A stretch of DNA of 58,106 nucleotides from Mycobacterium sp. (GTDB lineage: Bacteria; Actinomycetota; Actinomycetes; Mycobacteriales; Mycobacteriaceae): NCBI RefSeq assembly GCF_019247635.1, contig NZ_JAFBAR010000053.1, forward strand, positions 1 to 58,106. Direction: 5' to 3'. A program made the translations under genes and the position numbers. The notes under the pieces were generated by a model. That model had not been told where the DNA came from. It saw nothing but the letters and a program-made list of their open reading frames with translations, and did no database searches. Positions 20,972 to 22,609 of this stretch are shown in pieces; position 1 is the stretch's first letter, and each line of letters opens with the position of its first letter.

Positions 20972-22609
20972 TTAGATACCGAGTTCCTGCTCGATCTGCG
21001 GGAAGTATTGGAAACCGTCCGGAGTGAGCAGAATCCAGTCGTGAATTTGGCCGGTTGCCAGGATGAAACTGATCGGCGCACCTTGGGTCGCGGCTTTTTG
21101 CTCGAGCACCAACGTGTCGGGAGCGAGTGAATCCAGGGAGCCCGAGTAGACATACGTCGGCGGGAGTCCATGGAGTGAGCCATACAGCGGACTCACCATG
21201 TAGTTGTTCTCAGGAAGATTGCCTGCCCACTCCTTGCCGATCAGTTGCCCGGGCGCCACAGGGAGCAGGGGGTCCTGGACCAACGGAATGTTGGGATTGG
21301 TCAGCTCCACATCTAGCCAAGGTGACAGCAGAACCATCGACGAAGGTACGGGTTCACCCTGGTTCACCATGTACTCGACGGCCGACAGCGCCAGGGTGCC
21401 GCCCGCGGAGTCACCGAGCACGCTGACGTGGGAGGCCCCGTGTTGAGCGATTTCCATGGAGATAAGGCCGGCCATTTCCGGTACCACCGTGCCGGCGGTG
21501 CCGCCTTGCTGCAGTAAGGGGTATATGGGCACTTCGAAGGTCGCCCCGGTTTGGTAGGCCATTAACGAATAATCGACCCAGTGGAAGATCGACGGCGGAA
21601 AGATGAACGCGCCGCCGTGAATGGCCACCACGTAGTTGCCGGATGGATGAGCCGGCGTGATCTGCACTACCGTCATCCCGTCATAAGTCGTCTGCTGGAC
21701 AGATTCGCCCAGCAGCGCCGTCAACAGAAGGGGCGGGGAGTTGCCGATGACCAGTGATAGTGGCGGGACGTTGCTGGCGAACAGCGCCAAAAGTGGGGAA
21801 TTCGTCGCTGCAAGTTGAGGTTCAAGTCCCGACAAGGCCAGGATAGGTTTTACCGGCAAGAGCGCGGTTTCTTCCAATCTGGTTGCCAGCGACGGTGTGC
21901 CGGTGAAGGTCCCGCCCTGCACCGCCGTGAATGGCGAAGCAGCCGGGGCCCCGAAGATCTCGGTGTAAAGCGTCTCGGCCACCCCGGTGAGCACCGTGGT
22001 CGGTGAAGCTGGGGTCTGCTGAACTCCCCCAACGAGAGCGAAGCCGTTTTCGATGGCTTTGCCGAACTCGCCCGGCAGTCCGGGCAGGTTTTCCAACACT
22101 TGCCCCCACGGCCCCAACTGCGCGACCGTCGCCGACGCACTGGCGTGATATCCGCTCATCACAGCGGCATCCTGAGCCCACATCTGCTCGTATTCAGCCT
22201 CAGCCGCCGCGATCGCCGGAGCGTTTTGCCCGAACAGGTTCGAGATCACCAGCGACATCAGCTGGCCGCGATTGGCCGTCACCAGCCCGGGGTTCACGAT
22301 TGTTGCCAGCGCAGCCTCATACGAGGTGGCCGCCGCCCGCGCTTGGGTTGCCGACTGTGCGGCTTGAGCCGCTGCCCCTCCCAGCCAGTCCACGTACTGG
22401 CTGGCCACATTCGTCATCGACGCCGACCCGGCGCCTTGCCAGGCCTGGCCGGTGAGGTCGGAAGTTACCGAGCTAAACGCGTTCGCCGCTGAGCTCAGCT
22501 CGCTGCCGATCCCGTCCCAGGCCGCCGCCGCCGCCAACATCGGCCCCGAACCCGGTCCATCAAGCAGCAGCACCGAATTGATCTCTGGCGGCCACACCGA
22601 AAAGTTCAC
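20972..22609 (-). CDS. PPE-family protein fused to an alpha/beta hydrolase (lipase/esterase)
   Basis: The product has 545 residues. Residues 1-170 are a PPE domain: SVWPPEINS at 4-12, WQG at 57-59 and helical Ala-rich repeats, the form exported by ESX type VII systems. After a linker, the C-terminal half is a hormone-sensitive-lipase-type hydrolase with oxyanion HGG at 331-333, nucleophile GDSAGG (Ser401), likely Asp493 in SGSLDSLAPD and His523 in QIHDWIL. It probably cleaves acyl esters outside the cytoplasm, like PE/PPE-LipY enzymes. GTG follows AAGGAG by 6 bases. It separates murE from pbpB, where M. tuberculosis has a PE_PGRS gene. Substrate and PE partner are unknown. Confidence 0.9.
   Translation of the reverse strand: MNFSVWPPEINSVLLLDGPGSGPMLAAAAAWDGIGSELSSAANAFSSVTSDLTGQAWQGAGSASMTNVASQYVDWLGGAAAQAAQSATQARAAATSYEAALATIVNPGLVTANRGQLMSLVISNLFGQNAPAIAAAEAEYEQMWAQDAAVMSGYHASASATVAQLGPWGQVLENLPGLPGEFGKAIENGFALVGGVQQTPASPTTVLTGVAETLYTEIFGAPAASPFTAVQGGTFTGTPSLATRLEETALLPVKPILALSGLEPQLAATNSPLLALFASNVPPLSLVIGNSPPLLLTALLGESVQQTTYDGMTVVQITPAHPSGNYVVAIHGGAFIFPPSIFHWVDYSLMAYQTGATFEVPIYPLLQQGGTAGTVVPEMAGLISMEIAQHGASHVSVLGDSAGGTLALSAVEYMVNQGEPVPSSMVLLSPWLDVELTNPNIPLVQDPLLPVAPGQLIGKEWAGNLPENNYMVSPLYGSLHGLPPTYVYSGSLDSLAPDTLVLEQKAATQGAPISFILATGQIHDWILLTPDGFQYFPQIEQELGI

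What the first reader, a model, noticed from the sequence alone, without database searches (positions are those of the whole stretch)
20972..22609. PPE-hydrolase fusion inserted in the division and wall cluster
A PPE export domain joined to a complete HSL-type hydrolase (HGG, GDSAGG, Asp, His) lies between murE and pbpB, splitting a block that is continuous in most bacteria. M. tuberculosis has a different, unrelated PE_PGRS gene at the same interval, so this spot seems to accept PE/PPE genes repeatedly. The protein may be a surface lipase exported by ESX-5, analogous to LipY, and its link to septal genes could be regulatory or accidental.
Basis: partly seen in the sequence, partly recalled or inferred. 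Interest (0 to 1): 0.72.

Follow-up and report, generated by a model that had tools for sequence, protein, structure and literature searches.

The report
Lipase gene at insertion-prone cell-wall junction
This mycobacterial gene encodes a LipY-type lipase joined to a PPE domain, likely sent to the cell surface by the ESX-5 system, and it sits in a gap between two cell-wall genes where many related mycobacteria carry other extra genes, so its place there is probably a matter of tolerated insertion rather than a link to cell division.

Summary
ORF 20972-22609 (-, 545 aa) is a PPE domain (residues 2-165) fused to an HSL-type hydrolase with HGG, GDSAGG, Asp493 and His523, lying between murE and pbpB. 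It is not merely analogous to LipY: it passes NCBI's LipY equivalog model (507 bits, cut-off 450), and a review states that LipY is a PPE protein in M. marinum and a PE protein in M. tuberculosis. So the protein is a known kind. The genome also encodes the ESX-5 core proteins EccB5 and EccC5.

What is unusual is the place. In 30 other genomes with full-length PPE-LipY, none shows it beside murE or pbpB. But the pbpB-murE junction itself is a general insertion hotspot: 21 of 65 measured relatives with murE like the window's carry 1-12 kb there (3 more have no pbpB within about 12 kb), against 0 of 51 rapid-type relatives and 0 at seven other dcw junctions. Cargo is mixed; PE/PPE genes are a minority. 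A promoter-like block before murE survives most insertions, and PPE-lipY keeps its own conserved 60-bp leader at unrelated sites. I infer a self-contained gene at a tolerant boundary, not a septal regulon member. Enzyme activity, export and promoters are untested.

The parts
20972..22609 (-). PPE-LipY: PPE domain + linker + HSL-type lipase, 545 aa, GTG start
22115..22606 (-). PPE domain (residues 2-165)
   Evidence: PF00823; place also; PDB PPE15 match residues 1-169, E 1.4e-34
21032..21631 (-). alpha/beta hydrolase domain core (residues 327-526)
21611..21619 (-). HGG motif (331-333), oxyanion-hole motif of HSL-type enzymes (role recalled)
21398..21415 (-). GDSAGG (399-404) with predicted nucleophile Ser401
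21131..21133 (-). Asp493, predicted catalytic acid
21041..21043 (-). His523, predicted catalytic base
22610..22669 (-). 60-bp leader conserved upstream of PPE-lipY at unrelated genomic sites; likely carries its own promoter
22649..22655 (-). GTACGTT element (contains TACGTT, a TANNNT -10-like hexamer, consensus recalled), 46 bp before the lipY start
22729..22750 (.). 22-bp perfect palindrome between pbpB and lipY; a 40-nt stretch around it folds at -23.0 kcal/mol; no T-run seen; function unknown
20724..20788 (-). 65-bp block before murE, conserved in relatives with and without insertions
20773..20778 (-). TAGGGT, -10-like element 55 bp before the murE start
19200..20723 (-). murE, downstream neighbour
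22861..24852 (-). pbpB (FtsI-type PBP), upstream neighbour
   Evidence: transpeptidase and dimerisation domains; named by position and homology

Best explanation
The gene at 20972-22609 encodes a LipY-family protein, a PPE domain joined to an HSL-type hydrolase with Ser401, Asp493 and His523 in place, that is predicted to be exported by ESX-5 and to cleave triacylglycerol at the cell surface, and it occupies the insertion-prone pbpB-murE junction as what is likely a self-contained unit with its own promoter. Shown here: the domains, the motif residues, the LipY model score, EccB5 and EccC5 in the genome, the insertion bias of this junction, and the conserved leaders before murE and before lipY. 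Inferred: export (the PPE domain would pair with a PE protein encoded elsewhere, since the 251-bp gap to pbpB leaves no room for one), lipolysis, promoter function of both leaders, and that the gene reached this site by relocation. On this reading the gene has no functional tie to septation; it landed where murE likely had its own promoter, so the insertion did little harm.
For: LipY equivalog NF052352 at 507 bits, cut-off 450. Lipase part 66-75% identical to 12 LipY-like proteins of relatives that lack a PPE motif (read as PE type; PE domain not scanned), while the N-terminal parts are 20-25%. 731 homologues at E<=1e-50 among 7999 scored, of which 120 were listed, many named LipY or triacylglycerol lipase; M. 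marinum PPE-type at 71%. LipY is a PPE protein in M. marinum (PMC7028111, passages). EccC5 2911 bits and EccB5 992 bits to the ESX-5 structure 7np7. pbpB-murE gap of 900 bp or more in 21 of 65 similar-type relatives (window not counted), 0 of 51 rapid-type, and 0 at the seven other dcw junctions. Insertions need 12 changes on a FastTree tree of 80 rows, 11 forced by starred branches. murE block z>=5 in 19 of 24 inserted, 34 of 44 uninserted, 2 of 51 rapid-type. lipY leader z>=3 in 27 of 30 distinct relatives' upstream stretches, while the next 190 bp reach it in 1 of 30; GTASSTT in 28 of 31 PPE-lipY leaders (the window's copy among them) against 3 of 60 other PPE leaders.
Against: No activity, export or transcription was tested. 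The consensus promoter scan (E. coli sigma-70 type) found none. No other genome was found with PPE-lipY here, so stability and selection at the site are unknown, and a misassembly cannot be fully excluded in a 130-contig genome. The usual lipY region of this genome ends at a contig edge, so loss of a PE-type lipY and true relocation are not proven. The closest homologues (80-81%) are proteins without genomic context. In 5 of 24 inserted and 10 of 44 uninserted similar-type loci the murE block is below z 5. PPE domain confidence in the model is low (10-residue blocks of 39-74 pLDDT up to residue 170).
Confidence: 0.75

Rival explanations
1. Functional recruitment: PPE-LipY was placed in the dcw cluster by selection so that a surface lipase is expressed with septal wall synthesis, through read-through from pbpB.
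For: Same strand as pbpB and murE, 251 bp after pbpB, intact ORF.
Against: None of the 30 other genomes with full-length PPE-LipY shows it beside murE or pbpB; the leader of lipY resembles the one used at unrelated sites; a strong palindrome lies between pbpB and lipY; the junction takes unrelated cargo in many relatives.
Confidence: 0.1
2. The PPE-LipY is a recent horizontal import from another mycobacterium, and the pbpB-murE site is just where it landed.
For: GC3 of the gene is 0.744 against 0.835 (murE) and 0.873 (pbpB); its tree group of 42 holds no row from the loci of named or G-handle genomes other than the window's.
Against: PPE-lipY has lower GC3 than murE in 12 of 12 other genomes compared, so the composition is usual for the gene; no homologue closer than 81% was found.
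Confidence: 0.25
3. Assembly artefact joining a lipY contig to the dcw contig.
For: Draft genome of 130 contigs; the usual lipY neighbour sits at a contig edge.
Against: Both neighbours are full length and both short leaders are intact at the two sides of the gene; insertions at exactly this junction are common in relatives.
Confidence: 0.05

Closest known systems
LipY of M. marinum (PPE type)
   Same: PPE domain + linker + HSL-type lipase; 71% identity over 99-100% of the query
   Different: Window gene belongs to another starred tree group (42 rows) and lies between pbpB and murE
LipY of M. tuberculosis (Rv3097c, PE type)
   Same: Homologous lipase domain (PE-type LipY-like proteins of relatives 66-75% identical there); ESX-5 substrate in print (PMC6819658 and PMC9953084, passages)
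   Different: Export domain is PE, not PPE; different chromosomal place (recalled)
PE_PGRS38 (Rv2162c) and Rv2161c-Rv2159c in M. tuberculosis
   Same: Extra genes in the stretch upstream of murE (PMC3605390, passages; PMC6736417, passages, says the Rv2161c-Rv2159c region and its homologues are only in slow growers)
   Different: Unrelated proteins; no lipase
HSL-family esterases such as 3d7r, EstE5, E40
   Same: Fold and motifs of the C-terminal domain
   Different: No PPE domain; roughly 14-27% identity in the structural matches listed

Membership tests
LipY (NCBIfam NF052352) | Score over the curated equivalog cut-off | tested here: met
   506.9 bits, cut-off 450, residues 169-545
LipY (NCBIfam NF052352) | PE or PPE domain N-terminal to the lipase | tested here: met
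   PF00823, residues 2-165
LipY (NCBIfam NF052352) | ESX-5-dependent export | not testable with these tools
   Only EccB5 and EccC5 were shown in the genome
LipY (NCBIfam NF052352) | Triacylglycerol hydrolysis | not testable with these tools
   Motif residues present
HSL / Abhydrolase_3 family | HGG, GDSAG serine motif, catalytic Asp and His | tested here: met
   role of each residue recalled from the family
PPE family | PPE motif near the N-terminus and PF00823 domain | tested here: met
   PPE at residues 7-9; 206 bits
PE-PPE domain hydrolases (PF08237) | PF08237 domain | tested here: not met
   Not among the six Pfam families found up to E 0.1
dcw operon member | Conserved presence in the cluster across relatives | tested here: not met
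   No LipY match in the fetched stretch upstream of murE of 69 similar-type and 51 rapid-type relatives; the one hit is the PPE domain of another PPE gene in L103. One of the 69 (L129) reaches only 302 bp
dcw operon member | Co-transcription with pbpB or murE | not testable with these tools
   No RNA data

The most novel reading that the evidence does not exclude
In the slow-growing branch of Mycobacterium the murE promoter moved out of the 3' end of pbpB into its own spacer, turning one junction of an otherwise closed cell-wall operon into a lineage-specific safe harbour that has repeatedly captured cargo, from transposases and regulators to PE_PGRS, PPE and, here, an autonomous PPE-lipY cassette that roams the genome with its own leader.
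Probability: 0.45. Interest if true: 0.6.

Novelty: new member of a known kind. Interest (0 to 1): 0.42.

Why it matters
The protein itself adds a separately branching member to the PPE-type LipY lipases. The place matters more: it gives a testable reason why dcw clusters of M. tuberculosis-like species carry unrelated genes just before murE. A split transcript tolerates insertion, whereas overlapping or tightly packed genes elsewhere in the cluster do not. If right, genes found at this spot should not be read as cell-division genes by neighbourhood, a common annotation shortcut.

Tried and rejected
GC3 as a sign of recent import: rejected, since PPE-lipY is lower than murE in 12 of 12 other genomes. 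Direct or inverted repeats as marks of transposition around the gene: the repeat finder on 20600-23000 gave only short, mostly imperfect families, none flanking the gene convincingly. E. coli-type promoter scan: 0 promoters; 1 terminator-like site, inside the gene, against a shuffle mean of 1.7. Contig C118 as the ESX-5 locus: its ORFs look like lipid metabolism and PPE genes, not ESX-5 (by eye from ORF sequences); EccB5 and EccC5 were then found on C63. P450 beside EccC5: the ORF I picked (L279:686-1771) had no Pfam match, so only EccB5, EccC5 and a ferredoxin-like ORF are claimed there. PPE fold by structure: not settled, as the hydrolase domain filled the lists and the PPE part of the model has low confidence. 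Empty-site comparison on the pbpB side: 24 of 25 uninterrupted spacers show nothing shared above z 3, one (L111) gives z 6.7. Papers: no paper held LipY and PPE-LipY as terms; the listings showed none whose title or start of abstract describes the pbpB-murE junction as an insertion hotspot; for most of those papers only the listing was seen. Daleke 2011 is not held and is cited through others.

Rows dropped before counts: L129 (contig ends 302 bp upstream of murE) from the gap counts; L104, L116 and L134 have no pbpB within about 12 kb and are counted apart. G158's murE was not fetched (contig edge), and murE hits beyond the listed rows were not fetched. Of 194 other murE-bearing genomes, 120 were fetched (80). 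Slow-type (similar-type) and rapid-type are my labels from murE identity and tree position; growth rate is unknown. The tree holds 10 of the 51 rapid-type rows.

Full report
What is there. The window is contig C112 of a 4.68-Mb, 130-contig Mycobacterium genome, 98% complete (genus from its relatives). ORF 20972-22609 (-) is intact, 545 aa, GTG start. Pfam gives PPE at 2-165 (206 bits) and Abhydrolase_3 at 327-526 (76 bits). NCBIfam gives the equivalog triacylglycerol lipase LipY, 506.9 bits against a cut-off of 450, residues 169-545. The flanks are murE (NCBIfam) and an FtsI/PBP-type transpeptidase read as pbpB, both on the same strand, 248 and 251 bp away.

It is LipY, not an analogue. The lipase domain is 66-75% identical to twelve PE-type LipY-like proteins of relatives, their N-terminal parts only 20-25%: one lipase behind two export domains. 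A review says that LipY is a PE protein in M. tuberculosis and a PPE protein in M. marinum (PMC7028111, passages; it cites Daleke 2011, which is not held). ESX-5 export and surface processing are published for the PE type (PMC6819658, passages; PMC9953084, passages). In this genome an EccC matches EccC5 of 7np7 at 2911 bits and the adjoining EccB matches EccB5 at 992 bits; the best ESX-3 or ESX-1 chains, some of them fragments, score 187 and 302 bits. Other ESX-5 parts were not examined.

Where PPE-lipY lives elsewhere. Full-length PPE-LipY (E <= 1e-200) occurs in 31 of 396 genomes of the genus searched, the window's included. The other 30 were inspected with about 1.5 kb or more on each side where contigs allowed; no murE, pbpB, murF or ftsL-like hit lies nearby (34 loci, some of the same genome). 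Their neighbourhoods differ: one set shares neighbours with a PE-type lipY about 5-7 kb away, another shares a different gene set, and M. bohemicum has a third (that output was cut, and L162-L166 were not seen). In a tree of 139 rows the window's lies in a starred (97) set of 42, whose other rows all come from the protein search, apart from the sets at the first two sites (midpoint root).

The junction is a hotspot. I fetched 120 stretches reaching upstream of murE and 20 further murE-downstream stretches. Among 66 similar-type loci with a measurable gap (window included) 22 have 900 bp or more; without the window, 21 of 65. Three more (L104, L116, L134) show no pbpB within about 12 kb, and L129 ends too soon. 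Among 51 rapid-type loci 0 do, median gap 43 bp, largest 468. At the other junctions (mraZ-mraW, mraW-ftsL-like, ftsL-like-pbpB, murE-murF, murF-mraY, mraY-murD, murD-ftsW) 0 insertions of that size occur in 57-61 upstream and 21 downstream similar-type loci, and 0 in 39-48 rapid-type. On a FastTree tree of 80 rows (10 of the 51 rapid-type ones) all 25 insertion-bearing rows lie in one starred clade of 62; the trait needs 12 changes, 11 forced by starred branches, gains and losses together.

The cargo is mixed. Pfam on 30 chosen ORFs of the 101 picked found, among others, TauE, MerR, SnoaL, TetR, FAD monooxygenase, MMPL, thioesterase, a LuxR/cyclase-like ATPase, a luciferase-like/TetR/CMD trio, Mutator transposase, an rve transposase and a phage-type integrase, HSP20, MFS, WXG100, DUF732, a phenol-hydroxylase-type oxygenase and a PPE-pentapeptide protein; four of the 30 had no family. 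PE_PGRS-like frames are in L101, L103, L106 and L120, and a PGRS repeat fragment in L116. So PE/PPE-type cargo is in 6 of 25 genomes with the window counted.

Why this junction. RT-PCR in M. bovis BCG found no product across Rv2159c-murE and put murE first in the transcript, with a promoter upstream (PMC3605390, passages). In the data here the last 65 bp before murE are conserved with the window's at z >= 5 in 19 of 24 inserted, 34 of 44 uninserted and 2 of 51 rapid-type loci. TAGGGT lies within 160 bp in 19 of 24, 33 of 44 and 19 of 51 (shuffle rates 0.01-0.05), at a median of 57 bp before murE in both similar-type sets, while 11 of the 19 rapid-type ones sit at 9 bp. I infer that in rapid types the promoter abuts or overlaps the end of pbpB, leaving no free spacer, and that in the other branch it stands alone, so insertions upstream of it are tolerated. 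In five inserted genomes (L107, L121, L128, L134, L135) and ten uninserted similar-type ones the block falls below z 5, which is against a strict rule.

lipY carries its own leader. The 60 bp before the PPE-lipY start resemble the window's at z >= 3 in 27 of 30 distinct relatives' stretches at other sites, the next 190 bp in 1 of 30. GTASSTT is present in 28 of 31 PPE-lipY leaders (the window's copy is among them) and 3 of 60 other PPE leaders. Of those three, L188 is itself a full PPE-LipY that my filter misfiled, L197 is a PPE-LipY-like frame cut by a contig end, and the third is the PPE gene of L103, which lies at the same pbpB-murE junction. TACGTT fits the mycobacterial TANNNT -10 (recalled). 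With the 22-bp palindrome between pbpB and lipY (40 nt fold at -23.0 kcal/mol) this points to a self-contained transcription unit. None of it was measured.

Limits. A PE-type lipY copy in this genome is not seen, but the usual lipY neighbour ends at a contig edge, so its loss is not shown. No relative examined shares the window's arrangement, and the nearest proteins (80-81%) have no context. Growth types are inferred from murE similarity.

Verdict. A known kind of protein, correctly spotted, in an unusual place that is best explained by a general insertion hotspot which I did not find described as such in the searches made. PMC6736417 notes that the Rv2161c-Rv2159c region is confined to slow growers (passages), which is part of the same pattern.

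Noticed in passing
L120:335-2353 and 9835-10599 (G074): About 760 bp of the 3' end of pbpB are duplicated (96% identical) on the far side of a foreign insertion before murE, a possible trace of how cargo entered.
   Followed up: partly
L103:7569-9584 (G047): A PPE-pentapeptide gene at the same pbpB-murE junction has a PPE domain 57% identical to the window's and the same GTASSTT element in its leader.
   Followed up: no
L121 (G186): The insertion holds an rve transposase and a phage-type integrase, and pbpB aligns only to residue 573 of 663.
   Followed up: no
window 35494-35541: Hairpin with perfect 20-bp arms and an 8-base loop, the longest arms of three such sites found in the window.
   Followed up: no
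window 9457-9480: 24-bp perfect palindrome.
   Followed up: no
window 26971-27074: mraW RNA (RF01746) by mraW, 81 bits.
   Followed up: no
L104 and L116: A luciferase-like / TetR / CMD trio (families scanned in L104 only), like the Rv2161c-Rv2159c set of M. tuberculosis (likeness by family, recalled), sits with large LuxR/cyclase-like genes and no pbpB within about 12 kb.
   Followed up: partly
G006, G007, G105, G120: Four lipY-like matches run over internal stop codons, so some lipY copies seem to have decayed.
   Followed up: no
L167:10239-10679 (G058) and L004:3-440: Next to a full PPE-lipY a second, divergent PPE-LipY-type frame, 84% identical to the window's over residues 1-146, runs off the contig end.
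   Followed up: no
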